NCBI GenBank assembly: GCA_902826815.1
Contig: CADEGF010000058.1
Location: 1-42,376 of the forward strand
Direction: 5' to 3'
DNA length: 42,376 nt
Source: an uncultured Mycobacteriaceae bacterium
Lineage (GTDB): Bacteria; Actinomycetota; Actinomycetes; Mycobacteriales; Mycobacteriaceae
How positions within the stretch are numbered: position 1 is the first letter of the stretch; each line of letters starts with the position of its first letter. Shown one piece after another: positions 1,721 through 16,496 of the stretch. The notes under the pieces are model-generated. The model was not told the DNA's origin and did no database searches. It was given only the letters and a program-made list of their open reading frames with translations. Both the position numbers and the translations under genes were made by a program.

Positions 1721-2014
1721 CTAGCCGTCACCCGGATCGCTACCGAGCAGGTCGATCATCGACGTCTGCGGGTTGAGCATGTTGTCGGGAAACACCACGG
1801 TGATTGCGTCAGCGGGGCACGCTTGTTCGCACAACCCGCAATACCAGCACTCGTCGGGGTACTTGATCACGGGAAGCTCGTTGGACCGGGGCTCCTTGTA
1901 AATGATGTCGCCCGGGCAGACGTAGTCGCAGATCATGCACCGGATGCATGTGTCGGGGTTGACGAGGATTGGATTGTGCGGTGTTGCCGCGTCATTCATG
2001 GTCTCGGCACTCAT
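1721..2014 (-). CDS. 2x[4Fe-4S] ferredoxin, AprB-like
   Basis: A 97-residue ferredoxin with two complete cluster motifs: Cys 23/26/29/33 and Cys 56/59/62/66, each of the form CxxCxxCxxxCP. The second motif (ECWYCGLCEQACP) and the short C-terminal tail resemble the beta subunit of adenylylsulfate reductase, though true AprB is longer. It overlaps the upstream flavoprotein gene by ATGA, so the two are translationally coupled and probably form an electron-transfer complex in which the ferredoxin passes electrons to or from the FAD subunit. The partner acceptor is unknown. It is the last gene of a two-gene operon and ends next to R1 copy 1. Confidence 0.85.
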   Translation of the reverse strand: MSAETMNDAATPHNPILVNPDTCIRCMICDYVCPGDIIYKEPRSNELPVIKYPDECWYCGLCEQACPADAITVVFPDNMLNPQTSMIDLLGSDPGDG

Positions 2015-3744
2015 CGGGCGGCGCTCCTCGCGGTCTCGGCACGGCGGTCTTCGATCAGATAGTCCAACAAAATCTCACCGCCCGGATCGCGGCGCAGGAC
2101 GATCGCTTTCTTCCAGGCCACGTCGTCGGTCTCAGGATGATCAACGCGCCGATGGGCCGCGCCCGACCTGCTCTCGGTCCGGTGCAAAGCGGCCTCGGTC
2201 ATGATCTCGGCGGCCTGCCTGATGTTCTTGGATTCGAGGGTGCGCATCAAGGCATGGAAAGAGTCGGCCTTCAGTTCGGGCTCATGCGCGGCGAGCGCTT
2301 GCAGGAGGGCGCGGCCGTGCCGCATGCCCTTGTCCGTGCGTCGCATCCCCACATAGTTTGTGACGATCCGGCGGACGTGATCTTCGAAGTCCTTCCAATT
2401 CTCGTCTGACTCGGTGACCAACGGCTGGTCCATCCGTGCCAGAGCGTCGCTGGTCGACGCCGTGTCCACAGCTACCCCGTCGGTCGCCGTTAGCCGCTCG
2501 ACGGCTCCGCGACCAGCGATGGCGCCCATCGCAGCGGCGGCGGAGATACCGCCGCTGACCATCGAGCAGTCGCCGCCGGCGAAGAGCCCGGTGATATTGG
2601 ACTCCCCAGACGTGTCAACGACGAGCCCGCTGCCCCGGAAGTACGAGCCGCCCCGCCGAATGGACATCTCCGACAGTCCGATCGGCAGAAGCTCCTTGCG
2701 AATGTCCAATCCCCGCTGGCGAAAATAGCCCGGCAGCGTATAGCGGTCGACACCCAGTGTGCGCACGAAGTTGTCGAGAGTGTCTTCAGGTAGATGTCGG
2801 ATGTCGACATAAAGAGGTTCGTTCCCGGCTAGAACTTCTTCGATGACGCCGTTGACCAGCATCGTGCGACGTGCCTTCTCGCCTTTGAGGTCGTACTTGA
2901 ACATGAACCGCTCGCCGTGGCGATTGAGGAAGTACGCGCCCTGACCGGCGTAGGAGTTCGTACCTTGCGTCGAGAACCCGAGAGGAGTGAGAGTCGCCTC
3001 AACGAGCTCCATGTTCACCAGCTTGGCTCCGCGCCGGAAGGCCATCGCATGTCCGTCGCCAGTGTTGTACGGGAAATGCCAACTGTCGAAAGGCATTCCC
3101 GAGATGTTTCGCGAGATGCGATTGATGTCGCCGGTCGAAATAACCACCGTCTTGGCGTGAATCAAGTAGCGCTCGCCTGTACGGCAGTTGAAGCCCACAG
3201 CGCCAGCTACGCGTTCGCCCGTCACGTCTGTGACGAGGTCGGTGATCATCGTGCGCGACAGAAACTTTGCTCCGTGGCCGACGGTATAGCGGCCGAGTTG
3301 GTACTTGAACTTGCTGCCGTCAAAATTGAGGTGGTACTCGCCGGGCAGACCGAACGCCCGTGTCCGGAAATATTCGCCCGTGGTCGGGTCGGTGAAATCG
3401 ATGCCAATGTCGACCAGCCGGTCGAACACGCGTGGAAGCTCGTGGACGGCGCGCTCGGCAACGTCGAGGTCGCTCAGGCCATCGGTCAGGCCGGGGACGA
3501 ACGCCATCAGGTGTTGCGGGGTGTCCCATTCCTCGCCCGCGTTGAGCGGCGCCATGAATTGGTCAACGCCCCCGGCAACGCTGCCCGCCCGCTCCAAGAA
3601 CCTCGCTTTGTCGGCGACCAAGACGGCGGCGCCTGCATCACGGGCATAGATGGCCGCCAAGCACCCAGCGACACCACCGCCGACGATGAGGACTTCGGTC
3701 TGCATCTGGGTCAACTCGGCGGTGGGCCATTCCAACTGGTTCAT
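2011..3744 (-). CDS. FAD-dependent oxidoreductase, AprA / fumarate reductase superfamily
   Basis: A 577-residue flavoprotein. The FAD-binding GGGVAG is at 22-27, and a second FAD contact (LFAGGDCSMVSGG) is near the end of the FAD domain. Stretches such as DKARFLERAGSVAGGV and VAGAVGFN resemble the alpha subunit of APS reductase (AprA) more than succinate dehydrogenase or fumarate reductase. No signal peptide is seen, so it should act in the cytoplasm with the ferredoxin encoded 4 bp into its 3' end. If a true AprA relative, it could oxidise sulfite; other members act on unrelated substrates and the active-site residues were not checked. The start at 3744 has GGGAG 7 bp upstream. A strong promoter with a LacI-type operator lies directly upstream. 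Confidence 0.8.
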   Translation of the reverse strand: MNQLEWPTAELTQMQTEVLIVGGGVAGCLAAIYARDAGAAVLVADKARFLERAGSVAGGVDQFMAPLNAGEEWDTPQHLMAFVPGLTDGLSDLDVAERAVHELPRVFDRLVDIGIDFTDPTTGEYFRTRAFGLPGEYHLNFDGSKFKYQLGRYTVGHGAKFLSRTMITDLVTDVTGERVAGAVGFNCRTGERYLIHAKTVVISTGDINRISRNISGMPFDSWHFPYNTGDGHAMAFRRGAKLVNMELVEATLTPLGFSTQGTNSYAGQGAYFLNRHGERFMFKYDLKGEKARRTMLVNGVIEEVLAGNEPLYVDIRHLPEDTLDNFVRTLGVDRYTLPGYFRQRGLDIRKELLPIGLSEMSIRRGGSYFRGSGLVVDTSGESNITGLFAGGDCSMVSGGISAAAAMGAIAGRGAVERLTATDGVAVDTASTSDALARMDQPLVTESDENWKDFEDHVRRIVTNYVGMRRTDKGMRHGRALLQALAAHEPELKADSFHALMRTLESKNIRQAAEIMTEAALHRTESRSGAAHRRVDHPETDDVAWKKAIVLRRDPGGEILLDYLIEDRRAETARSAAR

Positions 3745-3780
3745 CCGGTCTCCCGCTCAGGGTCAATTCATCACATGAAA

Positions 3781-3829
3781 ATGCAAACGTATGCATTCGA
3801 TAGTAAGCAGCGCTTAGATGAGGTGTCAA
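3781..3829 (-). promoter_or_regulatory. promoter and LacI-type operator of the AprA/AprB-like operon
   Basis: On the minus strand TTGACA (3829-3824) and TACTAT (3805-3800) are 18 bp apart. Immediately downstream, at the expected transcription start, is ATGCAAACGTATGCAT (3781-3796), which matches its own complement at 14 of 16 positions. The core resembles the CAAACGTTTG sites at 6031 and 13801. The position suits repression by the LacI protein encoded next door. Confidence 0.7.
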
Positions 3830-3872
3830 CACGTTGGTTCTCCAGACGGCTGGAATCGACGGTGGTGTGGCG

Positions 3873-4904
3873 TCAGATCGACCGGGTGGACGCCCGCACT
3901 TGGAGCGAAGTCGGAAGGAGCACCCTGGCCGGTGAGGCGTCAGGGTTGTCGAGCAGATTGAGCATCAACCGCGCTGTCTCCCTGCCGATATCGTATTTCG
4001 GAACACGGATGCTTGTCAGTGGCGGGTTGAACTCGTCGCACCAGCGGGATCCGTTGTATCCGACCACGGAGACGTCTTTGGGAACCTCGAGGCCGTTGGC
4101 CCGCAATGCGCGGTAGCATCCGAGCGCGATCATGTCGCTGGGGGCGATGATCGCGGTGAACTCGGCGTCGCGCGCCAGCAGCTCCTTCGTCGCCTCGGCG
4201 CCGTAGTCCTTGGTGAACCATGGCGCGAACACGATCAGCCGCTGGTCGACCGCTAGACCGAGGGTCTGCATCCATGCCAGGAAGTGCTGGTGGCGGTAGA
4301 ACCCGGTGGACGCTTCCAGTGCCGCGCCGACGAAGGCGATGCGTCGATGGCCCAGTTCGACAAGGTGCTTCACCGCAAGGCCGATGCCCTGGTGATCGTC
4401 GCCGGCCACCATCGACATCGGCGCATCGTCGACCGTGCGGTTGACGAGCACGACGGGGACACCCGAGTTCGCGAGAACGCTTGTCAGGGGGTATTTGCGC
4501 CGGGCAGTCGCCATTACCAGCCCGTCCACGCGCCTTTGCATGAAGACGTCGATGAGGTGCTCTTCACGGCCAAGGTCCTGGTCGGTGTTACCCAGGATCA
4601 TGACGTACCCGCGATCGCGCAGCCCGTCCTCGATGCCCCGAACGATCGGCGGGAACAGGGGGTTTCCGAGATCCGGCACCAACATGCCGATGGTCATCGA
4701 CTTCTGATCTTTGAGTCCGCGCGCAAAGGGATTCGCTCGGTACCCCAAAGCGTCTGCGGCAGCCAGCACCCGCTTGAGCGTCTCGGGCTTGACCATGCTT
4801 CGGGTCTCCGCGCGAAGCGCCCTGGAAACAGTCGAAATGTCAAGTTGCGCAGCGCTTGCGACCTCGCGGATGGTCGCCGCGCGCGGTCGATCAGATTCGG
4901 CCAT
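3873..4904 (-). CDS. LacI-family transcriptional regulator
   Basis: A 343-residue LacI/GalR regulator. The N-terminal helix-turn-helix reads IREVASAAQLDISTVSRAL, followed by a hinge helix (ANPFARGL) and a periplasmic-binding-protein-like sensor domain (MLVPDLGNPLFPPIVRGIE onward). It probably represses the island promoters and is released by a pathway metabolite. The ATG at 4904 is preceded by AAAGGGAGA at good spacing; nine upstream in-frame codons are discarded. The gene overlaps the end of the amidohydrolase gene by 14 bp, so it is cotranscribed from the operator-bearing promoter near 6031, which implies autoregulation. The candidate operators at 3781, 6031, 13801 and 13972 are its likely regulon. 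Confidence 0.9.
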   Translation of the reverse strand: MAESDRPRAATIREVASAAQLDISTVSRALRAETRSMVKPETLKRVLAAADALGYRANPFARGLKDQKSMTIGMLVPDLGNPLFPPIVRGIEDGLRDRGYVMILGNTDQDLGREEHLIDVFMQRRVDGLVMATARRKYPLTSVLANSGVPVVLVNRTVDDAPMSMVAGDDHQGIGLAVKHLVELGHRRIAFVGAALEASTGFYRHQHFLAWMQTLGLAVDQRLIVFAPWFTKDYGAEATKELLARDAEFTAIIAPSDMIALGCYRALRANGLEVPKDVSVVGYNGSRWCDEFNPPLTSIRVPKYDIGRETARLMLNLLDNPDASPARVLLPTSLQVRASTRSI

Positions 4905-5973
4905 GACGCTGTCTCCCTTTACGGCGAACATCTCGATCTGGCCAGGAGTCTAGAGCAAATTCCATTATCGGCCCTCGGCCAACTCGGGGGCCGAGCAGGG
5001 TACGGGCATTTTCGTCGAGGATTCTGTCCGCCTGGGATGCGTCCATTCCAGCCGTGCTGCGGACGAAGTCAACTGGCGTGGGATCGCCCATCTCGAACGG
5101 ATAGTCACTGCCCATGACGACCTGCCCGGAGCCGACAACTGAAACGAGATACGACAGCGCGGCAGGTGAATGCACCACGGTGTCGAAATACATCGTGCGC
5201 AGCCACTCGCTGGGCAATGCGGTCAGGTTGGCGGCGGCGCCCCTTACGTCGCTGCGAAACGCGCGATCCCACCTCCCGATCTGATAGGGCGCAAATCCGC
5301 CGCCATGTACGAAGCACAACCGCAACCGCTGATGGCGCTCGACGACTCCGCCGAACACCAGATGCCCGATGGCTACCGTCGATTCAGCCGGATTTCCAAC
5401 AAGATTGCCGAGAAAATGCCGCTCGACGGCGCGCCCAGCCAGCGAGTGCAGCGGGTGTACCAACACGACGCAGTCAAGCTCTTCAGCCACATTCCATACT
5501 GGTTCAAACGCCGGGTCATCCAAGTCGCGCGATCCGGGCCGGGTTGCGATCTCGGCTCCGACCATTCCCAGTTCTGCAACGCAGTGGCGAAGTTCCTCGG
5601 CAGCCGCCCTCGGGTCACACATCGGCAAATTGGCCAGGCCAAGGAACCGGCCCGGATGGCCTGCCACGAGCCCGGCCATCGCCTCGTTGAACACGCGTGC
5701 AAACGTTGGGGCGACGTCGATCGGAAGCTCACACGCCGACAGGTTCATCCAGGTGGAAAGCACCTGCACATCGACCCCGGTTCGGTCCATCACCTCGAGC
5801 CGTTCGGCGACGTCAACGATGTTGGCGGGTAACAACCTTGGCCGACCGTTCCCGATGGCGACCCGGTATCTGTCGCCGTCGGAGGAAGCGGTCGCACCCA
5901 GTCGGCCCCCTTCGGCGAGCTCGGTCAGTAAAGCCTGAGGAACACAGTGCGCATGAAGGTCGAACGTCGGCAA
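4891..5973 (-). CDS. amidohydrolase-family decarboxylase/hydrolase (ACMSD-like, COG2159)
   Basis: A TIM-barrel metal-dependent enzyme of 360 residues, related to 2-amino-3-carboxymuconate-6-semialdehyde decarboxylase, gamma-resorcylate decarboxylase and similar hydratases. Visible metal and active-site motifs are FDLHAH (HxH) at the N-terminus, LVHPLHS, FVHGGGFAPY and the terminal GSDYPFEMGDP. The family performs non-oxidative decarboxylation, hydration or hydrolysis of carboxylated substrates; the substrate cannot be read from sequence. I place the start at the TTG at 5973, because AGGAG sits 7 bp upstream and the protein then starts just before the HxH strand; the longer frame runs through the divergent promoter. 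It is first gene of an operon with lacI. Confidence 0.8.
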   Translation of the reverse strand: MPTFDLHAHCVPQALLTELAEGGRLGATASSDGDRYRVAIGNGRPRLLPANIVDVAERLEVMDRTGVDVQVLSTWMNLSACELPIDVAPTFARVFNEAMAGLVAGHPGRFLGLANLPMCDPRAAAEELRHCVAELGMVGAEIATRPGSRDLDDPAFEPVWNVAEELDCVVLVHPLHSLAGRAVERHFLGNLVGNPAESTVAIGHLVFGGVVERHQRLRLCFVHGGGFAPYQIGRWDRAFRSDVRGAAANLTALPSEWLRTMYFDTVVHSPAALSYLVSVVGSGQVVMGSDYPFEMGDPTPVDFVRSTAGMDASQADRILDENARTLLGPRVGRGPIMEFALDSWPDRDVRRKGRQRHGRI

Positions 5974-6004
5974 GATACAGCTCCTAGCTGGGTGAACAGG
6001 TACG

Positions 6005-6050
6005 AATCTAATCTGCGTGGTTGACCAATACAAACGTTTGGGGCTAGTTT
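6005..6050. promoter_or_regulatory. divergent promoters sharing one LacI-type operator
   Basis: The perfect palindrome CAAACGTTTG (6031-6040) lies between a rightward -35 TTGACC (6021-6026) and -10 TAGTTT (6045-6050), 18 bp apart. It also overlaps a leftward -35 TTGTAT (6033-6028) paired with -10 TAGATT (6010-6005), 17 bp apart. One bound repressor could therefore silence both the amidohydrolase-lacI operon and the dehydrogenase operon. The flanks AATACAAACGTTTG are shared with the site at 13801. Confidence 0.7.
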
Positions 6051-6080
6051 CTCTCACACGTCCAGTGAAGGAGGCAGCGC

Positions 6081-7058
6081 GTGAGCGGACCCTTGGTGGC
6101 GATCCTGGGCACCCGCTATCGGGATTTCGCAATTGAAGAGACTGTGCTGGGCCCACTGAACGCCACGATTGTCAGCGACGCCGGCGGCACGCCCGAGGCC
6201 ATCGCCGAGATCGCCAAGTCCGCGGATGTGGTGCTTGCAGGGTCTGCACCGCGATTCGACGAAGCCGTCCTGGCGTCGCTCGATTGCATTGGGATCGTCC
6301 GCTACGGAGTGGGAACCGACTCGATCGACTTGGACGCTGCTCGGCGCCTCGGGATCGCGGTGGCGCGCGTGTCGGACTATGGCACCGAGGCGGTTGCTTT
6401 TCACGCTGTGGCCGCCGCCGCAGCACTCCTTCGCCGGCTCCCTGACGCCGATCGCAGTATCCGCGGCGGTCGCTGGGGCTTTGCCGATCTGCGCCCGCTA
6501 CACGTTCCGAGTGAACTGACTGCCGGCGTGATCGGGTATGGACGAATCGGTCGGCAAGTAGCCGATTATCTTGCCGGATTGGGGTTTTCAGTCTGTGCTC
6601 ATGACGAGTACATCGATATCCCGGTCGGGTCCGGCGTCAGCTCCTTCGGGCTCGACGAATTGCTCGCCAGCAGCGACGTCGTGTTCTTACACGCGCCGGG
6701 TAACCAGGACGGCACCCCCATGCTGGACCGAGGCAGGCTTGAGGCGATGCGGCCGGGCAGCGTACTGATCAATACGGCCCGGGGTTCCTTGGTGGACCTC
6801 GATGCGCTGGTCGACGCGCTGCGCGCGGGACGCCCTGCGCGTGCCGCTCTCGATGTCTTTCCCAAGGAGCCGCTCGACATCAACGTCTTTGCGGGTGTCG
6901 AGGAGCAGGTGTTGCTGACACCTCACATGGCTTGGTACACAGAGGAATCCGAAGCGGATATGAGGCAGAAGGCTGCGAACGAGGCTGCCCGGCTGCTTAG
7001 GAGACAGCCGTTGCGGGACCCTGTCGTTGAGCCACAACAGCGGAAGGCGCATCCATGA
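6081..7058 (+). CDS. D-2-hydroxyacid dehydrogenase (possible sulfolactate dehydrogenase, SlcC-like)
   Basis: A 325-residue NAD-dependent dehydrogenase of the D-isomer-specific family. The nucleotide-binding GYGRIG is at 162-167. The catalytic set is Arg244 (NTARGS), Glu273 (PKEP) and His292 (TPH), with the usual 29 and 19 residue spacings, so it should be active. It interconverts a 2-hydroxyacid and a 2-oxoacid. (S)-sulfolactate dehydrogenase SlcC is a known member of this family, and the SuyAB-like lyase in the island makes that role attractive, but phosphoglycerate- or glyoxylate-type substrates are equally allowed by sequence. The GTG at 6081 has GAAGGAGG upstream. It is first of four genes under the LacI-operated promoter and overlaps the next gene by ATGA. 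Confidence 0.85.
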   Translation: MSGPLVAILGTRYRDFAIEETVLGPLNATIVSDAGGTPEAIAEIAKSADVVLAGSAPRFDEAVLASLDCIGIVRYGVGTDSIDLDAARRLGIAVARVSDYGTEAVAFHAVAAAAALLRRLPDADRSIRGGRWGFADLRPLHVPSELTAGVIGYGRIGRQVADYLAGLGFSVCAHDEYIDIPVGSGVSSFGLDELLASSDVVFLHAPGNQDGTPMLDRGRLEAMRPGSVLINTARGSLVDLDALVDALRAGRPARAALDVFPKEPLDINVFAGVEEQVLLTPHMAWYTEESEADMRQKAANEAARLLRRQPLRDPVVEPQQRKAHP

Positions 7059-7837
7059 GCAACAATCTCGCGCGGATGACGAGTCCTGAGGCGGCTGTCG
7101 CCCTCGCGCGATCAAAGACGGTGGTGCTGCCGATCGGCAGCATCGAACAGCACGGTCCGCATCTGCCGAACGGTACCGACACAATGGCGGCCGAGCTCAT
7201 CGCCGAAGAGGTCGCGGCGCGACTCGACGCGATGTACGCGCCCTTCTGCCCATACGGTGTGACGCCGATCCACGCAGGCCACCCAGGATCGGTGACGTTG
7301 CGCCGCGAGACGTTCGAGGCTGTCCTGCAGGATGTATGCACCGAGCTGATCAGGGCGGGTGCCCAGACGGTCATCTTGGTCAACTGGCACGAGGGAAACA
7401 TCGCTTCGATGAACGCGGTGGCAACTGACCTCCAAGACCGTTACGACGTCACATTCATTGCGGCGCAAGCCTGTTACACCGCAGCGCGCCTCTACCGCGA
7501 CGAGGGCGGCGAACTCACCCACGGCGGTGGCATCGAAACTCTTGCTGTGTTGGCCTACGACGAAACTTTGGCAAAGGCCGACCGCGTCGGCGAGCCGACC
7601 CGGCCCCCTGGCGCCTTCGAAATGGACAAGATGCGGCGATCGCCGGAGGTGTACGGGTTCATCACCGACGTCACCGAGTTGGCCGACGACGGGTGGTACG
7701 GCAATCCGCACTGGGCAACGGTGGACCGGTCAAAGGACTTCACCCAAGTGGTCGCGAGCGGTGTGCTCGCCGGCGTCGAAGTGGTGATGAACGCGCGTCG
7801 GATACGCAATGACAACCAACCGAAGGAGACTCGATGA
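7055..7837 (+). CDS. creatininase-family amidohydrolase
   Basis: A 260-residue protein of the creatininase/MftE/FAPy-deformylase family, which uses two metal ions to hydrolyse cyclic or linear amides. Metal ligands are visible: Glu31 and His33 (GSIEQHGPHLP), Asp42 (GTDT), His112 (NWHEGN) and Glu161 (GIETL). It overlaps both neighbours by ATGA and so is translationally coupled to the dehydrogenase and the Gfo/Idh/MocA enzyme. A C-N hydrolase here suggests that the island substrate or an intermediate contains an amide, lactam or similar bond. The exact reaction is not predictable. Mycofactocin genes are absent, so MftE is unlikely. Confidence 0.85.
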   Translation: MSNNLARMTSPEAAVALARSKTVVLPIGSIEQHGPHLPNGTDTMAAELIAEEVAARLDAMYAPFCPYGVTPIHAGHPGSVTLRRETFEAVLQDVCTELIRAGAQTVILVNWHEGNIASMNAVATDLQDRYDVTFIAAQACYTAARLYRDEGGELTHGGGIETLAVLAYDETLAKADRVGEPTRPPGAFEMDKMRRSPEVYGFITDVTELADDGWYGNPHWATVDRSKDFTQVVASGVLAGVEVVMNARRIRNDNQPKETR

Positions 7838-8901
7838 CCGACAAAGTGCGACTCGCCCCCGTTGGCCTCGGCAGGTGGGCCCGGGTGCTCGCGCGGGGTG
7901 CGCAGCGTGGCGACAAGGTCGAGCTCTACAGTTGTTTCAGCAGAGATGCCGCCAAGCGCGAAGCGTTCCAGAGTGAATTCGGCATCGAACGCAGCGCCGA
8001 CTCATACGAGGATCTGCTCGCCGACCCCATGGTCGAAGGCGTGCTCGTGACCACGCCCAATGACACCCACAAAGATGTCATCATCCAGGCGCTCGAGGCC
8101 GGCAAGGCCGTCTATACCGACAAGCCGATCGCACACACGCTAGAGGACGCCAATCGCATTGCGGCATCGGTGCGCGACACGGATTCGGTTTTCGCGGTGG
8201 GGCACAGCTCGCGACGGTTGTCCGGCCACCGCGAAATGAAACGCTGGATCTCCGACGGGCGGCTTGGTGAGGTGTCGCTGGCCGAGGCGAACTTCTCCAA
8301 CGAGCGCGGCCTGGAGCTCACTCCGCAGACCTGGCGCTTCTACGCCGACAAGAGTCCGGGCGGCGCGTTCATCCAGCTTGGCGTGCACCACGCCGATACC
8401 TTGCAGTTCCTGCTCGGTCCGGTGAAGACGGTCACCGCTCACGCGCGCAAGCTCTACACCAAGTCGGAGGTCCCCGACGCGATCATGGCGATCCTCGAAT
8501 TCGAGAGCGGCGCGCTCGGCTACATCGGAACAGGATGGGCGTCTCCGGGGGTCTACCGGATGAATCTCCTTGGTACAAAGGCGAATCTGATGTATGACCT
8601 GGACTTCACGCATTGGGACGAATCTCATCTGGCCGATGACTGGTCGATGTTGCAGTCGCAGTTCTACGGTGAGTCAGAACGCCAAGCGGTCGACCTGCCA
8701 CGTACCGACATGTTCCGTGAACAGCTGGAGGAGTTCGGCCTGGCCGCTCGCGGTCAGGCCACAGTGGAGGTCGGAGCAGACGAAGCTGTTCGCGCGCTTG
8801 CCGTCGTAAGGGCGGCGATCGAGTCATCCAAGCGCGACGGCGAAGCCGTTCCCCTGCAAGAGGTTATCGATAACGCGCAGGTGAGCCCGGCAGTGTCGTA
8901 G
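7834..8901 (+). CDS. Gfo/Idh/MocA-family NAD(P)-dependent oxidoreductase
   Basis: A 355-residue oxidoreductase with an N-terminal Rossmann fold (GLGRWARVLARG near residue 11), the catalytic lysine in TDKPIA (Lys97) and the substrate-domain motif GGAFIQLGVHHADTL near 176-190. The family oxidises hydroxyl groups of sugars, inositols, sugar acids and related polyols, or reduces the matching ketones. It overlaps the creatininase gene by ATGA. With the 2-hydroxyacid dehydrogenase upstream it gives the operon two dehydrogenases, which fits stepwise oxidation or epimerisation of a hydroxylated carboxylate. Substrate unknown. Confidence 0.85.
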   Translation: MTDKVRLAPVGLGRWARVLARGAQRGDKVELYSCFSRDAAKREAFQSEFGIERSADSYEDLLADPMVEGVLVTTPNDTHKDVIIQALEAGKAVYTDKPIAHTLEDANRIAASVRDTDSVFAVGHSSRRLSGHREMKRWISDGRLGEVSLAEANFSNERGLELTPQTWRFYADKSPGGAFIQLGVHHADTLQFLLGPVKTVTAHARKLYTKSEVPDAIMAILEFESGALGYIGTGWASPGVYRMNLLGTKANLMYDLDFTHWDESHLADDWSMLQSQFYGESERQAVDLPRTDMFREQLEEFGLAARGQATVEVGADEAVRALAVVRAAIESSKRDGEAVPLQEVIDNAQVSPAVS

Positions 8902-9297: not shown

Positions 9298-9306
9298 GCG
9301 GCACCG

Positions 9307-10150: not shown

Positions 10151-11185
10151 CTACCCTTGAACGTTGCCCGGATCGGGCTTGAGGCCGAGCTTTTCCTGGG
10201 CTGCCGTCAGGCAGCTGAAATCGGCGTGTGCCTTCCAGTCGAATCCTTCTGGCACGTTGCCGTTGTCGATCATGTCCTGGTTCCACTGCTCGAACGACTG
10301 CAACGAGGAACCGCCGTCCAGCGCGAGTTGATTGGTCATCTCCTCCGACCATTCGGCGATCTCGTCTTCGCTCGGATCCAGTTTCCTGTCGCGCACGATT
10401 TTGAGTACGTCTTGTTCGTTGGCCGTGTGGTCCGGGCCCTGCGATACGTACTGCAGAGCTTCCACGCGTCCCTGAACGTAGGCGCAGACCTCATCCTTGT
10501 GGTCCGCGAGGGTCTCGGAACGGACAACCCAGGTCTCCTGGGGCACCTCTCTGTAATCCTTCACGATCATCTGGCCGCCGTTGGCTTCCAGCGGGGACAA
10601 GTGGCGAGGTTGCAGCACCGCGACGTCGATCTGCCCGGCCAGCAGCGCCGTCAGCCGATCGTCGGAACCACCGGGAATCGACACGAAATCCATGGATTCG
10701 GGGTCCACGCCGCGCTCTTCGAGCAGCTTTTTGGCCACCGTCACATTGCGGTCGCCGATCGGACCACCGCTGATCTTGCGGCCGGCAAGGTTATTCGGGT
10801 CCACACCCTTGGCGATGCCGAGCCACCAGGCTTCCTTGTCCTTGATGACACCGACGATGGTCAGCGGAACGCTACCCTGTGCCATCGCGGCCCAGATGGC
10901 GTCGCTCTCCCCTTGCGCGATCCACACGTCGCCGCCGGTCAGCGCAGCCATGTATTCGTCGGAAGCGGTCACGTCAGCGGGCTCGGTGAACCCGAGTTCC
11001 GGCCAATACTTTTCGTCGGCAACCATCCACGTCATCTGGTTCATGAAGTCGTCGTTGTCATATGACATTTTGACCTGCGTGAACTTTTGGTCGGCTCCTC
11101 CTGCTTGGTCGGAGCCTCCACAGCCCGTCAACGCGAGGCCGGCCACCGCGAGCGCCGATAGCGCGCGTATTGCGTTCTTCTTCAC
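10151..11185 (-). CDS. ABC transporter solute-binding lipoprotein (SsuA/TauA/NMT1-like)
   Basis: A 344-residue lipoprotein whose signal peptide ends in the lipobox LALTGC (Cys near residue 22), followed by a binding domain of the aliphatic sulfonate, taurine or nitrate class. I choose the GTG at 11185 because GGAGGG lies 8 bp upstream; the longer ATG reading places that Shine-Dalgarno sequence inside the coding region. It captures the substrate outside the membrane and delivers it to the two permeases encoded upstream. The class transports sulfonates, taurine, nitrate, cyanate, thiamine precursors and aromatic acids, so the family alone does not fix the ligand. Confidence 0.85.
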   Translation of the reverse strand: MKKNAIRALSALAVAGLALTGCGGSDQAGGADQKFTQVKMSYDNDDFMNQMTWMVADEKYWPELGFTEPADVTASDEYMAALTGGDVWIAQGESDAIWAAMAQGSVPLTIVGVIKDKEAWWLGIAKGVDPNNLAGRKISGGPIGDRNVTVAKKLLEERGVDPESMDFVSIPGGSDDRLTALLAGQIDVAVLQPRHLSPLEANGGQMIVKDYREVPQETWVVRSETLADHKDEVCAYVQGRVEALQYVSQGPDHTANEQDVLKIVRDRKLDPSEDEIAEWSEEMTNQLALDGGSSLQSFEQWNQDMIDNGNVPEGFDWKAHADFSCLTAAQEKLGLKPDPGNVQG

Positions 11186-11263
11186 TGAAAAACCCTCCAT
11201 GCCTTCATTGTTCGAGATGTACAACAGACGCTGGGTTTCGGCGCCTGCGTCGGTCCGCTCCGC

Positions 11264-12112
11264 TCAGTCCGGCTGCTTACGCCATTCCATGACCTTTCTC
11301 TCCATGAATTGGGTGCTGCTGACCATGGCGACACAGAAGAGAAGAAATACGAGCAACATCGCATACACCTGCGCGCTGTTGAAGGTCTTCTGTGCGAGGG
11401 TGATGATGTATCCGATACCGTTGGTGCCGGTGAACAACTCACCGATGAACAGCCCCAGTAAGCCCCGTGCGACGCCCATGCGTACGCCTGTGGCGATGAA
11501 CGGAACGGTCGACGGCATGACCACCGACTTGAACAACTGGAAGCGGCTGGCACCGAAGGAACGCGCAGCCGTCAGCAGGCTGTTGTCGACCGTCTTGACA
11601 CCCTCCATGACCACCACGAGGGTCGCGGGTACGGCCGACAACACAATGATGGTGACGCGAGCCGCGTCGTTGATGCCCACCCACAGCAGGATCAGCGGCA
11701 TCAAAACGATGCGCGGCATCGTGTACATAGCCCATACGTACGTACTCAATGCCCGGTCCAGCCAAGGGATCCCGCCGATGAGCAGGCCGGCTGGAACCGC
11801 CATTGCGATGGAGATGACCATTCCGACCACGTAGACCGAGAGGCTAATCCCGAGGTTGTTCCACAAGATGCCTTCCCGGCTCATCTGAACCAGTTCGCTG
11901 AACACATCGGTGAACCGCGGGAGAAACATCGACGGAATGCCACCGTAGGTCGCGATCAGTTGCCAGATCAGCAGGAACGCCGTGAGATTGAGGATGCCGA
12001 ACACGATCCGTTGGCGGCGGGTGAACACCCGACGTGTCCGCCGGCGGGGCAGCGACTTGCGGAACACGCCTGGCACAAGCGTCTTTCGCGGCATCGCGAC
12101 GGATGTGGTCAC
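11264..12112 (-). CDS. ABC transporter permease (SsuC/TauC-like), second subunit
   Basis: A 282-residue inner-membrane permease with about six membrane segments and the BPD_transp_1 coupling stretch (LLTAARSFGASRFQLFKSVV). I set the start at the GTG at 12112, which overlaps the previous gene's stop as GTGA and has GAGGAGG about 8 bp upstream; the open frame beyond that is a shadow of the first permease gene. The operon encodes two different permeases, whereas Ssu and Tau systems usually have one that homodimerises, so a heterodimeric channel is likely. The N-terminal cytoplasmic tail is Arg-rich. Confidence 0.85.
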   Translation of the reverse strand: MTTSVAMPRKTLVPGVFRKSLPRRRTRRVFTRRQRIVFGILNLTAFLLIWQLIATYGGIPSMFLPRFTDVFSELVQMSREGILWNNLGISLSVYVVGMVISIAMAVPAGLLIGGIPWLDRALSTYVWAMYTMPRIVLMPLILLWVGINDAARVTIIVLSAVPATLVVVMEGVKTVDNSLLTAARSFGASRFQLFKSVVMPSTVPFIATGVRMGVARGLLGLFIGELFTGTNGIGYIITLAQKTFNSAQVYAMLLVFLLFCVAMVSSTQFMERKVMEWRKQPD

Positions 12113-12936
12113 AGGATGACCTCCTCGCGCCAGCGGCTCGCGATCACCTCGAGGTAGCGCGACGCCGATACCAGTGACAACGCGATCGCAATCAGCAGGA
12201 AGATGAAGGCGAACCCGCGGGCGGTGTCGAACGTGCGCAGCGAGTCGCGGACCTCGCCGCCGATGCTGCCGCGAGTCCCAATGAGCAGTTCGACCGATAT
12301 CAGGCCGACGAAACCGCGGGATATGGCGTTGCGGACTCCGCTTGCGATGAACGGCAGCGAGCATGGCGCAATCACCTTGTAGAACACGGAGAATCGGGTT
12401 CCACCAAAGGACCGTGCCGCCCGTACAAGACCGGCGTCGACCGTTTGCACTCCATCTTTGCAACTGAGGCAGAGCGGCACCGATGCAGACAAGACCACCA
12501 TCAGAATGCGGGTCGTCTCGCTGAGGCCGGTCATCAGGATGAGCAGTGGCGCGAACGCGACGTTGGGAAGGGCGAAGAACGCCCATAGATGAGGCGACGT
12601 GATCAGATCCGCGACTGGTGACATTCCGATGGCGAGGCCGATCGGAATGGCGACCAACGCCAACGCCATGCCGATCGCAAGCGGCCCTGCGCTGCCCGCG
12701 ACGGCTTCGGACACCGATCCGTCATGCACGGCGTCGACGAAGGCATCCCATACCGCACTGGGGCCGGGAAGGATGATGTCCGACGGGTTGAAGACCACGA
12801 TGGCCAACTGCCAGATCGCGATAAGGGCGATCAGGCTGACGAATCCCGGAAAGCGCTTTCTTGTCTGTTTTGAGATCCACGACGGATTCTTCTTCCTCGG
12901 CACCGTTGGCGCGCCGTTTGCAACCATCGTCGCCAT
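12109..12936 (-). CDS. ABC transporter permease (SsuC/TauC-like), first subunit
   Basis: A 275-residue permease with multiple hydrophobic helices and the ATPase-coupling motif (LVRAARSFGGTRFSVFYKVI). It starts 2 bp after the ATPase stop and overlaps the second permease by GTGA. Together with that paralogue it should form the membrane channel of the importer. It is about the same length as the second permease and clearly related to it, suggesting an old duplication within this transporter type. Confidence 0.85.
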   Translation of the reverse strand: MATMVANGAPTVPRKKNPSWISKQTRKRFPGFVSLIALIAIWQLAIVVFNPSDIILPGPSAVWDAFVDAVHDGSVSEAVAGSAGPLAIGMALALVAIPIGLAIGMSPVADLITSPHLWAFFALPNVAFAPLLILMTGLSETTRILMVVLSASVPLCLSCKDGVQTVDAGLVRAARSFGGTRFSVFYKVIAPCSLPFIASGVRNAISRGFVGLISVELLIGTRGSIGGEVRDSLRTFDTARGFAFIFLLIAIALSLVSASRYLEVIASRWREEVIL

Positions 12937-12938
12937 GC

Positions 12939-13751
12939 TCAGACCGCTTCCGACACAGGTTGGGTGAGCTGGTCCCAGATGTGCTCACGCAACTCTTGGA
13001 ACTCCGGGAGTTTTCGGCTCTCACGGCCGCGTGGCCGAGGGATGCCAACCGTGATGATCTCGCGGATTCGGCCAGGACGGCTCGTCACGATCGCGATTCG
13101 GTCAGCCAAGGTGATCGCCTCGTCGACGCTGTGGGTGATGAACAAGATCGCTTGGCCGGTCTCGGCGACGATGCGCGCAAGCTCGTCTTGCATGAGCTCG
13201 CGGGTCATTGCGTCCACGGCTGCGAAGGGTTCGTCCATCAGCAGCAGGCGCGGCTCGGTGACGAGGGCACGGGCCAGACCGACGCGTTGCCGCATGCCAC
13301 CGGAAAGCTCCCGCGGATAAGCCCTTTCGAATCCCGAGAGCCCAACCATCTTGATGTAACGAGCCACTTTCTCCTTGGTGTCGGAGTCGACTCGCCGCTG
13401 AAGCTCAAGACCGAATCGGACATTGGCCTCTGTGGTCCGCCATGGCATCAGCGCATAGTCCTGGAAGACGACGGCGCGATCGGTCTGGGGGCCGGTGACA
13501 GGTCTGCCCATCACAGCGACCTCCCCGGCGACCGGGAACGTCAGTCCCGCGACGACATTCAGGAATGTGCTCTTGCCGCATCCGCTCGGGCCGACGATCG
13601 CGACGAATTCGCCTTCCGCAACGTCGAGGCTGAAATCCTCGAGGGCGATCAGGGTGTCTTTCTCCCGCAAACGGTCGTAGCTCACCGATACGTCGCGGGC
13701 TTCGACTGCCAATCGGCGCTTGGTCAGCATTTTCGTCTTGTGGGCTTCCAC
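12939..13751 (-). CDS. ABC transporter ATP-binding protein (SsuB/TauB-like)
   Basis: A 270-residue ATPase with Walker [10 protein letters not shown] (54-62), Q-loop FQDYALMPW, signature LSGGMRQR (149-156), Walker B LLLMDEP (169-175) and the switch His in ITHSVDE. The Q-loop and signature forms are those of the sulfonate/nitrate/taurine branch. It starts with GTG at 13751, with AAAGGA upstream, and heads a five-gene operon: ATPase, two permeases, binding lipoprotein, FAH-family enzyme. A consensus promoter with a LacI-type operator lies about 50 bp upstream. Confidence 0.9.
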
Positions 13752-13800
13752 TGCGCGCTGTCCTTTGTCGGGGGGGCAATTTGTGATCTGGATCTCAATA

Positions 13801-13844
13801 CAAACGTTTGCTTACATAACAGAGGTTCGCGCGTCGGCTGTCAA
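13801..13844 (-). promoter_or_regulatory. promoter and LacI-type operator of the ABC importer operon
   Basis: Reading the minus strand, TTGACA (13844-13839) and TGTTAT (13821-13816) are exactly 17 bp apart. The perfect palindrome CAAACGTTTG (13801-13810) begins 5 bp past the -10 box, over the expected start point. The flanking AATA is the same as at 6027-6030. This is a textbook arrangement for repression by the island LacI protein. Confidence 0.75.
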
Positions 13845-13918: not shown

Positions 13919-13971
13919 GTTCGACGGTGATCGTCATTCGGGCTCCCATGCCCTGTGCCGGGGCGATGATT

Positions 13972-13983
13972 GCAAACGTTGGC
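13972..13983. promoter_or_regulatory. weaker second LacI-type operator upstream of the importer operon
   Basis: GCAAACGTTGGC matches its complement at 10 of 12 positions and shares the CAAACGTT core with the site at 13801, about 170 bp away. It could be an auxiliary operator for DNA looping. The 280-bp gap 13752-14031 holds this site, the primary operator and a small inverted repeat; I see no gene in it. Confidence 0.4.
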
Positions 13984-14031
13984 TTCCGCGCTGATCGTGG
14001 GGCCGCGATGCCGCGCGGCCCCACGTGAGCC

Positions 14032-15192
14032 TCAGGCGCTTCGGTAGAGCTTCGTCAAGGTGAATTCGCGGTGGCCGAGCGACTCGGCCGCGGTGAGCCG
14101 TCCATTGATGGTCCGCTCCACAATGTCCATCAGCGCCTCCCCTGCCTCCTCCACCGACTGGCCGTCGGTGAGCATCGCCGAGCAGTCGACGTCCATGTGG
14201 TCGGGCATCGACATCGCCGTCTTCGGGTTGGCGGTGATCTTCACGACCGGCTGGACAGGGTTGCCGATGACGTTGCCCTGCCCGGTCGGAAAGAGATTGA
14301 CCACGCCGCCTCCGGCCGCCATCAGCGTCACGCACTCGGCTGCGGCCGACGACGTGTCCATGAAGTGCAGCCCGGCGGTGGTTGGCGCTTCGGCCGGTGC
14401 AAGGGCGCCGACGATCGGTGCGGTCCCGGTCTTGACGATATTGCCCAACGCTTTTTCCTCGATCGTCGACAGCCCGCCAGCGATGTTGCCCTGCGTGGGC
14501 TGGGAACCGAGCAGGTTGGCGCCCGTTGCTTCGATCATGTCGATATAGCCGTCGTAAAACGACTGGAAACGTGCACGCACCTGGTCGTTTATGCAGCGCT
14601 CGGCGATCAGGTGCTCGCCGCCGGTCAACTCGCTCGTCTCGCCGAAAATCATCGTTCCGCCCTCGGCGACCCACTTATCGCTTACATAAGCTGTGACCCG
14701 ACACGAGCCGAGACCCGTAGTCGTGTCGGATTCGCCGTCCTTGGTGGTCAACAAAATCTCCGAGCGCTCGACGGGCTCGCGCACGATCTCGCTGGCTTCC
14801 TGCAGGAACTGCTGGGTGACTCGGCCTGCACGTTCGATTATCTTCAGGTCGCCGAGGCCCTCGATGGAAAAGCCCTCTACCGGCTTGCCGGTTTTGGCGA
14901 TGCCTTCCACTACACGCGCGGTCCAGTTCGGTTCAATGCCGATGACGACCACCGCCGCCGCGTTCGGGTTGGAGCCGATACCGATCAAGGTGCGGAACGT
15001 CAGCTCGAGATCCTCGCCGAACTGCAGGCGCCCGAATGCGTGCGGAAGCGCGAGGGCGCCTGGAATCACTGAGGCGACAGCTTCGGCGGCTGCGTTGGAG
15101 AGGTCGTCCACCGGCAGGACGGCCACATGGTTGCGGGTTCCGACTGTTCCGTTCGACCGGCGATATCCAGTCAGGCGACGCTGTTGTGCCAC
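14032..15192 (-). CDS. UxaA-family lyase, large subunit (SuyB-like sulfolactate sulfo-lyase candidate)
   Basis: A 386-residue protein matching the C-terminal catalytic part of altronate/galactarate dehydratases, here as a separate subunit. Features are GYRRSNGTVGTRNHVAVLP, GESDTTTGLGSC, GETSELTGGEH, SQPTQGNIAGGL, MDTSSAAAECVTLMAAGG and the terminus ALGHREF-type LGHREFTLTKLYRSA. From memory these stretches fit (2R)-sulfolactate sulfo-lyase SuyB better than E. coli UxaA, whose corresponding regions differ clearly. SuyAB cleaves sulfolactate to pyruvate and sulfite, using a Fe centre. Altronate or galactarate dehydratase remains the main alternative. The GTG start at 15192 has GAGGAG at 7 bp and overlaps the small-subunit gene by 22 bp, so the two are coupled. 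Confidence 0.75.
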   Translation of the reverse strand: MAQQRRLTGYRRSNGTVGTRNHVAVLPVDDLSNAAAEAVASVIPGALALPHAFGRLQFGEDLELTFRTLIGIGSNPNAAAVVVIGIEPNWTARVVEGIAKTGKPVEGFSIEGLGDLKIIERAGRVTQQFLQEASEIVREPVERSEILLTTKDGESDTTTGLGSCRVTAYVSDKWVAEGGTMIFGETSELTGGEHLIAERCINDQVRARFQSFYDGYIDMIEATGANLLGSQPTQGNIAGGLSTIEEKALGNIVKTGTAPIVGALAPAEAPTTAGLHFMDTSSAAAECVTLMAAGGGVVNLFPTGQGNVIGNPVQPVVKITANPKTAMSMPDHMDVDCSAMLTDGQSVEEAGEALMDIVERTINGRLTAAESLGHREFTLTKLYRSA

Positions 15193-15470
15193 CGTGCACT
15201 CCTCACATTGTGGATGTGGACGTAGTCGCCCATCTTGATTTCGGTGCTTGCCACCGCGATCCGTACGCCGTACTCGATGACGTCCTCGCCGGCGGCCATG
15301 TCGCGCAGCGCCACCTTGTGGCCTAGCGGGATCTCCGCGTTGGCCTCGACGTCGAGTGAGTCCGATCCGTCGAGGAAGACGACGTGGCCGGTCGCCTTCG
15401 GTGCGTCCATGACTGCTACCGCGACGTAATCACCGTCGCAATGAGCTAGGAAGGTTGGTTTCTTGACCAT
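15171..15470 (-). CDS. SAF-domain small subunit (SuyA-like)
   Basis: A 99-residue SAF-domain protein equal to the N-terminal domain of UxaA-type dehydratases. The conserved core is seen as EIPLGHKVALRDMAAGEDVIEYG, of which the GHK and YG parts are most typical, and the end reads VHIHNVRSARW. HN-(V/L)-(K/R)-(T/S)-ARW is what I recall from SuyA, whereas E. coli UxaA has HAHNTRTN. It is the partner of the large subunit encoded downstream with a 22-bp overlap. I take the ATG at 15470, with GGAG upstream; an earlier ATG at 15521 would run back through the promoter and operator. Confidence 0.75.
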   Translation of the reverse strand: MVKKPTFLAHCDGDYVAVAVMDAPKATGHVVFLDGSDSLDVEANAEIPLGHKVALRDMAAGEDVIEYGVRIAVASTEIKMGDYVHIHNVRSARWHNSVA

Positions 15471-15492
15471 CCGAGTAGCGCTCCATCTGGTT

Positions 15493-15550
15493 AGTGGTCT
15501 GACCTCTACTCGGCGGAACATTAGTATCGCGTTCTTTCGTTGTCAACGAA
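15493..15550 (-). promoter_or_regulatory. promoter and GntR-type operator of the SuyAB-like operon
   Basis: On the minus strand TTGACA (15546-15541) and TAATGT (15523-15518) are 17 bp apart. The -35 box sits inside the perfect palindrome TTCGTTGTCAACGAA (15536-15550). Downstream of the -10, AGTGGTCTGACCTCT (15493-15507) contains GGTC-N-GACC, the usual form of FadR-type operators, and matches the site at 15661. Confidence 0.65.
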
Positions 15551-15660
15551 CGGTTTGGGTCGAAAGATGCTCACAAATAGACAGATTGCATCGATCACGG
15601 GCAACGAACTCGATAGGGTGACATCTCAAGGAAGCCCGAGCTCTAATGTTGGTGGTGACC

Positions 15661-15675
15661 AGTGGTCTGTCCACT
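15661..15675. promoter_or_regulatory. GntR-type operator upstream of the GntR gene
   Basis: AGTGGTCTGTCCACT has perfect 5-bp outer arms and matches the operator at 15493-15507 in 13 of 15 positions. It lies about 70 bp before the regulator start and just past a possible -10 TAATGT (15644-15649). It probably serves autoregulation. The 273-bp gap 15471-15743 otherwise holds only this divergent control region. Confidence 0.6.
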
Positions 15676-15743
15676 CTCACAGCTGTAATCGCGTAGCCTT
15701 AGCTGACCGCACGACGGATGCGGCAGGCATGATGGGAAGTGAG

Positions 15744-16496
15744 ATGACCGCCGAAGACACGTTCAACCCGTGGCAGCCACTAGGGCAAGGCACTTTGAAC
15801 GGGCGGATCCGATCGGAGATACTGCGCGTCCTGGAGGCGCGCGCGCTATCCCCGGGCGATCGCCTTCCGTCCGAGCGTGAGTTGGCGGCAACCTTGAAGG
15901 TGAGCCGACCGTCGGTGCGCGAGGCGATTCGGTCGCTGCAGGCCGAGGGTCGGTTGGTCGTCAAGCACGGTCAGGGCGTATTCGTCGCCGAGGCCACGGC
16001 GCAGCGGGCATTTCGGGAGTCGATGGCGCAACTCGACGCGAGCCTCTCGGAGCTGTTCGCGATGCGCGAGGTGCTGGAAGTGCCTGCTGCGAGGTGGGCG
16101 GCGCAACGTCAGGATGCGCTGGGGCTCGCTGCCGTGCAGCGGGCCTTCCACGATCTCGACGAGGCGGTACGCGAGAAGCCGCGCGACTTCCAGAAGCTCC
16201 AGTACCTCGATGCGACCTTCCACCTGCGCATCGTGCAGGCCGCGGGAAATCGGTTGCTCGAACAGACCCAAGGGGTGCTCAACGACCTGCTGATGACCGG
16301 CCTCCAGACAACGCTCGAGGTCGAGGGGCGACTCGAGCAGTCACGGCATGAGCATCACGCGATTCTCACCGCAATACTCGAAGCAAACACCGGCGCCGCG
16401 GCGCGTGCGGCTCAGCTGCACGTGCGCAACGTGCGCAAGGCGGCCAACCGTCGCATCGCCGAGGCGTCGGCCCAGTTCGACCCTCCGCCCGCGTAG
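15744..16496 (+). CDS. GntR-family regulator, FadR subfamily (FCD domain)
   Basis: A 250-residue regulator. The N-terminal winged helix-turn-helix (PGDRLPSERELAATLKVSRP and the wing near GQGVFV) is followed by an FCD ligand domain with metal-type histidines in ATFHLRIV, HEHHAI and LHVRNV. It is divergent from the SuyAB-like operon and should bind the two matching operators between them, responding to a carboxylate such as the lyase substrate or product. I take the ATG at 15744, with GGGAAGTGAG just upstream; ATG 15729 is possible. The frame extends further upstream but would cross the operator. It is the last island gene before R1 copy 2. Confidence 0.9.
   Translation: MTAEDTFNPWQPLGQGTLNGRIRSEILRVLEARALSPGDRLPSERELAATLKVSRPSVREAIRSLQAEGRLVVKHGQGVFVAEATAQRAFRESMAQLDASLSELFAMREVLEVPAARWAAQRQDALGLAAVQRAFHDLDEAVREKPRDFQKLQYLDATFHLRIVQAAGNRLLEQTQGVLNDLLMTGLQTTLEVEGRLEQSRHEHHAILTAILEANTGAAARAAQLHVRNVRKAANRRIAEASAQFDPPPA

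What the first reader, a model, noticed from the sequence alone, without database searches (positions are those of the whole stretch)
1721..16496. Candidate organosulfonate catabolic system in a mycobacterium: SuyAB-like lyase, AprBA-like pair, sulfonate-class importer
The island combines a split UxaA-family lyase whose sequence resembles (2R)-sulfolactate sulfo-lyase, an SsuABC/TauABC-class importer with two permeases, a D-2-hydroxyacid dehydrogenase (the family of (S)-sulfolactate dehydrogenase) and an APS-reductase-like flavoprotein/ferredoxin. Sulfite released by SuyAB would need disposal, and an AprBA-like enzyme could oxidise it. I know of no described mycobacterial pathway with this gene set. 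A sugar-acid route (altronate-type dehydratase, FAH-family hydrolase giving pyruvate) is the competing reading.
Basis: partly seen in the sequence, partly recalled or inferred. Interest (0 to 1): 0.85.

Follow-up and report, generated by a model that had tools for sequence, protein, structure and literature searches.

The report
Organosulfonate-degrading gene cluster in a mycobacterium
This stretch of a mycobacterial genome carries a gene cluster, shared with at least three other actinobacteria, that most likely imports a sulfur-containing organic compound and splits off its sulfur as sulfite with the known enzyme type SuyAB, while its first steps, run by enzymes of unknown substrate, look new.

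Summary
The genes are real and at the stated places. The UxaA-family pair (14032-15521) is of the SuyAB type: its large subunit lies in a fully supported SuyB clade with proteins from DHPS and sulfofucose clusters and lacks the cysteines of altronate/galactarate dehydratases. The same 16 genes occur in Mycolicibacterium agri (same chromosomal site), an actinobacterial MAG and Nocardioides caldifontis; in the last two, genes for sulfite export, sulfolactate dehydrogenase-like or sulfite-dehydrogenase-like proteins lie beside them. Organosulfonate catabolism is well supported.

The AprBA-like pair lacks residues expected of an APS reductase and of a fumarate reductase, so sulfite oxidation by it is unlikely; Soe-like and YeiH-like genes on another contig are better candidates. 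The 2-hydroxyacid dehydrogenase is not shown to be SlcC: it belongs to a LacI-controlled core (2HADH, creatininase, Gfo/Idh, cupin) found in other Actinomycetota, mostly without suyAB in the stretch seen. The island joins two modules with separate conserved operators: GntR-SuyAB and a LacI core of unknown substrate. An untested idea is 2,4-diketo cleavage giving pyruvate plus sulfolactate.

The parts
1721..2014 (-). AprB-like ferredoxin subunit, 97 aa, eight Cys in two CxxCxxCxxxCP motifs
   Evidence: 79-82% in three relatives
2011..3744 (-). AprA/FrdA-family flavoprotein, substrate unknown
   Evidence: 79-88% in three relatives
3783..3794 (.). LacI-type operator upstream of aprA-like gene
   Evidence: present in 4 of 4 clusters
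3873..4931 (-). LacI-family regulator
4891..6156 (-). amidohydrolase_2 family, ACMSD-like; true start probably the TTG at 5973
   Evidence: codon checked, choice of start inferred
6030..6041 (.). LacI-type operator between amidohydrolase and 2HADH
   Evidence: 4 of 4 clusters
6081..7058 (+). D-2-hydroxyacid dehydrogenase
7055..7837 (+). creatininase-family hydrolase
7834..8901 (+). Gfo/Idh/MocA oxidoreductase
8932..9297 (+). cupin
9307..10104 (-). FAH-family hydrolase, closest solved relative L-2,4-diketo-3-deoxyrhamnonate hydrolase
10151..11224 (-). NMT1/SsuA-like substrate-binding protein (lipoprotein by its N-terminus, inferred)
11264..12130 (-). ABC permease 2; the open frame runs to 12586, the start is near 12130 but undetermined
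12109..12936 (-). ABC permease 1
12939..13751 (-). ABC ATPase, NtrCD/TauB class
13800..13811 (.). LacI-type operator upstream of ATPase gene
   Evidence: 4 of 4 clusters
13972..13983 (.). second LacI-type operator between suyB and ATPase; in the MAG it lies upstream of an Ldh_2 gene
   Evidence: 3 of 4 clusters
14032..15192 (-). SuyB-type large subunit, predicted (2R)-sulfolactate sulfo-lyase
15171..15521 (-). SuyA-type small subunit; start probably the ATG at 15470
   Evidence: codon checked, choice inferred; no Pfam family
15493..15506 (+). GntR-type operator upstream of suyA
   Evidence: 4 of 4 clusters
15661..15674 (+). GntR-type operator upstream of gntR
   Evidence: 3 of 4 clusters
15540..16496 (+). 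GntR/FCD regulator; start probably the ATG at 15729
1620..1722 (.). left copy of 103-base palindromic repeat (dispersed repeat, not taken for an att site)
16542..16644 (.). right copy of the same repeat, 95% identical

Best explanation
An inducible organosulfonate catabolic island built from two modules. An NMT1-type ABC importer brings in a sulfonate. Enzymes of a LacI-controlled core (Gfo/Idh and 2-hydroxyacid dehydrogenases, creatininase- and ACMSD-like hydrolases or decarboxylases, cupin, FAH hydrolase, AprBA-shaped flavoprotein-ferredoxin) convert it to (R)-sulfolactate. SuyAB, under its own GntR regulator, eliminates sulfite from sulfolactate and leaves pyruvate. Sulfite is exported or oxidised by YeiH-like and Soe-like proteins coded elsewhere in this genome. 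Shown by computation: SuyB type by tree and residues, cluster conservation, two operator sets, sulfite-handling genes beside the cluster in two of three relatives. Inferred: all activities, the substrate, every upstream step, and the role of the AprBA-like pair. The confidence given is for organosulfonate catabolism ending in SuyAB; the first rival below is nested in it and differs only in what the LacI core does.
For: SuyB is 57-62% identical to proteins beside hpsN/hpsO, beside a sulfate/sulfite exporter and sulfite oxidase with an ABC importer and LacI, beside TauE-type and sulfate exporter genes, and in S. mexicanum, a species that PMC12421959 names as carrying a sulfofucose cluster with SlcC, ComC and SuyAB (Discussion part 1); the seven dehydratase or outgroup rows are at 27-38%. 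SuyB clade support 100/100 in both trees. Cluster conserved in three more genomes, suyB 87-95%. Sulfite-handling or ComC-like genes adjacent in 2 of 3 relatives. Of 23 other SuyB-positive genomes of the class sample, six loci were opened: slcC-like and comC-like genes sit by suyAB in 6 of 6, a yeiH-like gene in 3 of 6. In the MAG the comC-like gene and suyA both have LacI-type sites upstream. In G731 importer and suyAB are divergent, their matched ends 35 bases apart, next to the same core in a different gene order. The own genome has YeiH-like and Soe-like genes.
Against: No activity data. No sulfite-handling gene and no ComC inside the island; the two ComC-like hits in the genome are 34%, and Nocardioides has none at E <= 1e-10. 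The MAG has no close Soe-like homologue (best 1.7e-18). The LacI core occurs in 5 of 6 other loci without suyAB in the fetched stretch, so its native substrate need not be a sulfonate; three of those five are short contigs. Binding-protein and ATPase models are far below curated cut-offs. YeiH and L-sulfolactate dehydrogenase models are below cut-off too.
Confidence: 0.78

Rival explanations
1. Nested in the best explanation: plain sulfolactate (or sulfopyruvate) degradation. The importer takes up sulfolactate, the 2HADH acts as SlcC and another dehydrogenase as ComC; the remaining core genes serve an unrelated, sulfur-free substrate and are merely neighbours.
For: 6 of 6 other actinobacterial suyAB loci opened have slcC-like and comC-like genes beside suyAB, 5 of 6 a gntR homologue in the stretch; the LacI core exists without suyAB nearby; separate operators.
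Against: In the MAG, LacI-type sites lie upstream of both the comC-like gene and suyA; importer and suyAB share one intergenic region in G731; all four clusters keep both modules together; 2HADH relatives go with the core in 5 of 6 loci.
Confidence: 0.3
2. Sugar-acid pathway: the UxaA pair is an altronate/galactarate-type dehydratase and FAH yields pyruvate; no sulfur involved.
For: Superfamily membership; FAH and Gfo/Idh resemble sugar-acid enzymes; LacI regulators often sense sugars (general knowledge).
Against: Tree and cysteine test; exporter or Soe-like genes beside two relatives.
Confidence: 0.06
3. The AprBA-like pair oxidises the released sulfite to APS.
For: Homology to APS/PAPS reductases, best solved match 8a8o, E 7.8e-42; ferredoxin partner with two cluster motifs; a Trp at the FAD site is kept.
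Against: Positions aligned with Mt Arg237 and His346 are Thr and Gly in 4 of 4 cluster rows (near His346 the cluster rows have three extra residues, so that column is less sure); aprA models 92.9 of 641.75 and 195.3 of 557 bits; for MtPAPSR itself no reverse reaction could be measured; Soe-like genes exist in 3 of 4 genomes.
Confidence: 0.08

Closest known systems
SuyAB with SlcC/ComC or HpsNOP (Paracoccus, Chromohalobacter, Cupriavidus; sulfolactate and DHPS degradation)
   Same: two-subunit lyase of the SuyB clade; regulator and, in P. versutus, LacI and a two-permease ABC importer beside it
   Different: no HpsNOP, no clear SlcC or ComC in the window; a LacI core of other enzymes instead
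Sulfofucose ED plus SuyAB tandem cluster (P. wurundjeri; S. mexicanum named in PMC12421959)
   Same: sugar-type upstream part joined to SuyAB and an ABC importer
   Different: upstream enzymes belong to other families; none of the SfcH, SfcD, SfcF or SfcE protein families named in the paper was assigned to an island gene
L-rhamnose/L-fucose/D-arabinose diketo pathways with FAH-family hydrolase
   Same: FAH protein closest to 2,4-diketo-3-deoxyrhamnonate hydrolase
   Different: no dehydratase and no SDR 4-dehydrogenase assigned in the island; sulfonate context
MtPAPSR and dissimilatory APS reductase
   Same: FAD subunit plus small two-cluster ferredoxin subunit
   Different: two expected catalytic positions replaced; catabolic and importer neighbours

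Membership tests
SuyAB sulfolactate sulfo-lyase | two separate subunits (small, and GD_AH large) | tested here: met
   small subunit reaches no Pfam family but matches small subunits of other suyAB loci
SuyAB sulfolactate sulfo-lyase | large subunit branches with SuyB, not with UxaA/GarD | tested here: met
   100/100 clade of 11 rows and 17 rows; clade named SuyB from neighbours and one paper, no biochemically tested SuyB sequence was knowingly in the set
SuyAB sulfolactate sulfo-lyase | absence of the four Cys shared by UxaA/GarD dehydratases (PMC6336799, passages) | tested here: met
   window 0 of 4; 5 of 7 outgroup rows 4 of 4, but Halarchaeum and Variovorax rows keep only one, so the test is not fully specific; 11 of 17 SuyB-clade rows keep the fourth Cys, the window's 6-row subclade has Asp
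SuyAB sulfolactate sulfo-lyase | sulfite release from (R)-sulfolactate | not testable with these tools
   needs enzyme assay
Dissimilatory APS reductase AprBA | reaches a family cut-off | tested here: not met
   92.9 vs 641.75 and 195.3 vs 557 bits
Dissimilatory APS reductase AprBA | catalytic Arg and His (which residues: recalled; that MtPAPSR keeps the proposed catalytic residues: PMC10322725, section 9) | tested here: not met
   Thr and Gly in 4 of 4 rows; no true AprA sequence was aligned, only MtPAPSR
Fumarate reductase/succinate dehydrogenase | FHPT and RLGGNSL motifs (role recalled; FHPT or FHPS and RLGGNSL seen in two SdhA/FrdA-like rows of the own genome) | tested here: not met
   absent in 4 of 4 cluster rows
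SlcC (S)-sulfolactate dehydrogenase | groups with SlcC of sulfolactate clusters | tested here: inconclusive
   39% to S. mexicanum SlcC, 35% to own SerA; placement open
SsuABC/TauABC importer | SsuA/TauB family cut-offs | tested here: not met
   SsuA_fam 41.2 of 163.5; TauB 226.8 of 357 bits; class resemblance only

The most novel reading that the evidence does not exclude
A new sulfonate pathway in which a C6 sulfosugar acid is oxidised to a 2,4-diketo intermediate and cleaved by the FAH hydrolase straight to pyruvate and sulfolactate, by-passing sulfolactaldehyde, with an AprBA-shaped flavoprotein-ferredoxin of new substrate class as one of the oxidising enzymes, and SuyAB finishing the job.
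Probability: 0.17. Interest if true: 0.78.

Novelty: new variant of a known kind. Interest (0 to 1): 0.55.

Why it matters
In the papers I saw, SuyAB-based desulfonation is described for Proteobacteria and for anaerobes (passages); here it is part of a conserved actinobacterial cluster, including two mycobacteria, joined to an uncharacterised LacI core. If true it adds mycobacteria to organosulfonate turnover, gives a testable substrate hunt through one binding protein, and gives a context for an AprBA-like enzyme group whose function is unknown to me.

Tried and rejected
Island flanked by att sites: the 103-base direct repeat looked like it, but it is a dispersed palindromic repeat (8 copies of its core in the genome with up to 2 mismatches, 0 for the reversed control), and M. 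agri has other palindromes at both junctions. How the island moved stays open.

D152 in place of the conserved Cys as a sign of changed function: rejected, because G808 and G868, with slcC-like and comC-like genes beside suyAB, share it.

Aminobacter FAH hit (56%) as a guide to function: its neighbourhood showed none of the other core genes except a hydroxyacid-dehydrogenase-type gene. R. pomeroyi megaplasmid 150000-195000: no UxaA-family gene annotated in that stretch. AprA-like hits at 28-31% in Tsukamurella, Methylobacterium and Aquabacterium (three of 40 listed opened) sit with one-permease ABC importers, one of the three with a TauE-type gene; their function is not told by this, and they keep the His but not the Arg. 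Arg-Ser motif as a SlcC marker: rejected, the S. mexicanum SlcC lacks it as well. Paper search gave no paper on APS reductase residues; 72 and 96 gave no structure paper on SuyAB or on the diketo hydrolase; 87 and 113 showed nothing on actinobacterial SuyAB in the rows listed (12 of 262, 15 of 386).

Full report
What is there. The window holds an island of 16 genes between an M20 peptidase gene (271-1602) and acpS (16644-17036) with fas (17046-26327). Eleven of the 16 genes lie on the minus strand; 2HADH, creatininase, Gfo/Idh, cupin and gntR lie on the plus strand. Pfam assigns 15 of the 16: ferredoxin, FAD_binding_2/Succ_DH flavoprotein, LacI, Amidohydro_2, 2-hydroxyacid dehydrogenase, creatininase, Gfo/Idh/MocA, cupin, FAA hydrolase, NMT1 binding protein, two BPD permeases, ABC ATPase, GD_AH large subunit, GntR/FCD. 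The small subunit reaches no Pfam family and rests on similarity to other small subunits.

Conservation. A scan of genome contigs with the AprA-like protein, which finds close relatives only (11 stretches matched a pattern, 3 encoded a relative), gave Mycolicibacterium agri, an Actinomycetota MAG (SZAS-8) and Nocardioides caldifontis. All three carry the same 16 genes, suyB at 95, 91 and 87%. In Nocardioides the amidohydrolase is displaced (54%) and gntR lies about 5.6 kb from suyA, beyond inserted genes. M. agri has the island between the same M20 and acpS-fas genes. The cluster looks rare: SuyB at E <= 1e-100 in 2 of 401 genomes of the family, one being the window's own and the other at coordinates equal to those of the R. 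jostii RHA1 plasmid hit; the AprA-like protein at E <= 1e-60 in 1 of 396 genomes of a phylum sample, the window's own.

SuyAB. In plasmid records the large subunit has 13 relatives at 56% or more among the 40 of 314 records listed; the next rows fall to about 40%. Of the six neighbourhoods of this group opened first, five were annotated: C. pinatubonensis has hpsN and hpsO; P. versutus has hisD-like, SDR and ADH genes, LacI, a two-permease ABC importer, a putative sulfate exporter and sulfite oxidase; Rhodobacteraceae SC52 has hisD-like genes and a putative sulfate exporter; M. oryzae has TauE-type and sulfate exporter genes and an Ldh-family gene; R. koreensis has a hydroxyacid dehydrogenase and an Ldh-family gene, but no annotated sulfite exporter. 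The S. mexicanum record is unannotated, as is a seventh, C. insecticola; S. mexicanum is named as carrying sulfofucose, SlcC, ComC and SuyAB genes in PMC12421959 (abstract and outline; sections 6 and 12 part 1). Maximum-likelihood trees put the window inside a 100/100 clade of these proteins, apart from E. coli UxaA and GarD (18 rows; 24 rows; the program warns of long outgroup branches, among them the Variovorax row next to the clade). PMC6336799 (passages) states that four Cys are conserved in the superfamily except in the sulfo-lyase. In my alignment the window has none of the four, while UxaA, GarD, E. albertii, Priestia and Sporomusa have all; Halarchaeum and Variovorax rows have only the fourth, so the marker is not perfectly specific. 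That my four columns are the paper's four is inferred from spacing; its protein was not aligned.

Other actinobacterial suyAB. In a class-level sample 24 of 394 genomes (own included) have SuyB at E <= 1e-120, 17 of them in one family of 1.3-1.9 Mb genomes. Six of the 23 others were opened: all six have slcC-like and comC-like genes by suyAB, five have a gntR homologue in the stretch, three an aldehyde dehydrogenase, three a YeiH-like exporter. So GntR-suyAB-slcC-comC looks like the usual actinobacterial unit. The window has GntR-suyAB but neither slcC nor comC of that type. The MAG has an Ldh_2 gene between ATPase and suyB whose best NCBIfam model is L-sulfolactate dehydrogenase (176.7 bits, cut-off 500).

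Sulfite disposal. Beside the cluster the MAG has a YeiH-like exporter gene (159.1 bits, cut-off 232.6). Nocardioides has a Mrp-like gene, a molybdopterin oxidoreductase, an Fe-S/NrfD fusion and a SulP permease, and a YeiH-like gene on the other flank. I call the molybdenum pair Soe-like from its architecture; this is inference, no tree was made, and its best models are other DMSO-reductase-family enzymes below cut-off. The window's own genome has a 58% homologue of the molybdenum subunit, an Fe-S/NrfD partner and a YeiH-like exporter (45%) on contig C32; M. agri has the same on its contig C188. The MAG has no close homologue of the molybdenum subunit.

AprBA-like pair. Closest solved chain is the PAPS reductase of Methanothermococcus. 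Aligned to it, the Trp at Mt206 is kept, but Mt Arg237 is Thr and Mt His346 is Gly in all four cluster members; the latter column is less sure because the cluster rows have three extra residues there. SdhA motifs are missing as well. PMC10322725 (section 9) says that MtPAPSR keeps the catalytic residues proposed for APS reductases and that no reverse reaction could be measured for it; which residues are meant is my recollection, and no true AprA was aligned. The pair is best called an AprBA-shaped oxidoreductase of unknown substrate, tied to the cluster by a conserved operator.

Regulation. A palindrome around RCAAACGWWTG occurs at five places in the window, 9 strand matches against 2.33 expected, 0 of 100 shuffles reaching 9, all inside the island; one of the five, at 5699, lies inside the amidohydrolase gene and matches on one strand only. 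Upstream of aprA-like, 2HADH and ATPase genes it is present in 4 of 4 clusters; between suyB and ATPase in 3 of 4; upstream of suyA in 1 of 4, the MAG. AGTGGTCTGNCCWC occurs twice (expected 0.07), and a slightly looser form before suyA in 4 of 4 and before gntR in 3 of 4 clusters, and twice in the G808 suyAB locus. Both patterns were drawn from the window, so the shuffle figures flatter them; the cross-genome recurrence is the stronger point.

The LacI core elsewhere. Gfo/Idh relatives at 67-73% occur in 6 of 395 other genomes of the phylum sample. All six stretches have cupin with Gfo/Idh; creatininase and 2HADH are in 5 of 6 (the sixth contig ends there); LacI in 2, FAH in 2, an importer of this type in 3, an ACMSD-like gene in 3 (one weak) of 6. 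LacI-type sites recur in 5 of 6. suyAB is in 1 of 6, G731, divergent from the importer with matched ends 35 bases apart and without a LacI-type site. The association of importer, core and suyAB thus has two gene orders, which speaks for function, while 5 of 6 without suyAB in the stretch speaks against a core that only serves sulfonates. Whether those genomes have suyAB elsewhere was not searched.

Mechanism. Shown: lyase type, conservation, operator-like sites. Inferred: import, conversion to sulfolactate, lyase reaction, sulfite removal. The FAH protein's nearest solved relative is a 2,4-diketo-3-deoxyrhamnonate hydrolase (8gsr, E 1.7e-63), which gives pyruvate and lactate (general knowledge). 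A 6-sulfo analogue would give pyruvate and sulfolactate. No dehydratase for such a route was assigned in the island, so this stays a guess (0.17).

Literature. Searches (rows listed only) and term look-ups in two reviews (PMC12890257 and PMC9594981, passages) showed no mycobacterial SuyAB pathway. PMC6303947 (passages and the SERA section) leaves the place of SlcC within its family open. The library lacks most subscription papers.

Noticed in passing
class search, family f99 genomes (e.g. L092, L094): 17 of 24 SuyB-positive genomes in the class sample belong to one family of 1.3-1.9 Mb genomes, perhaps freshwater acI-type Actinobacteria (inference from size only); the two opened have suyAB, slcC-, comC- and yeiH-like genes.
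   Followed up: partly
window 1620-1722 and 16542-16644: Dispersed palindromic repeat; 8 copies of its core in the genome with up to 2 mismatches; M. agri has different palindromes at the same junctions.
   Followed up: yes
L104 (G412:C2:46000-65900): LacI core beside a [2Fe-2S] subunit of molybdenum-hydroxylase type, two FrsA-like hydrolases and an amine-oxidase-like flavoprotein, hinting at another substrate.
   Followed up: partly
L067 (own contig C32:46500-66400): Soe-like molybdenum enzyme, YeiH-like exporter and an Fe-ADH with SarD as second-best model (204.4 of 700 bits), perhaps a second sulfonate locus.
   Followed up: partly
L034 (Variovorax plasmid): UxaA pair at 39% with hydroxyacid dehydrogenase, Ldh-family and TTT-type genes, placed as sister of the SuyB clade (long branch).
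   Followed up: no
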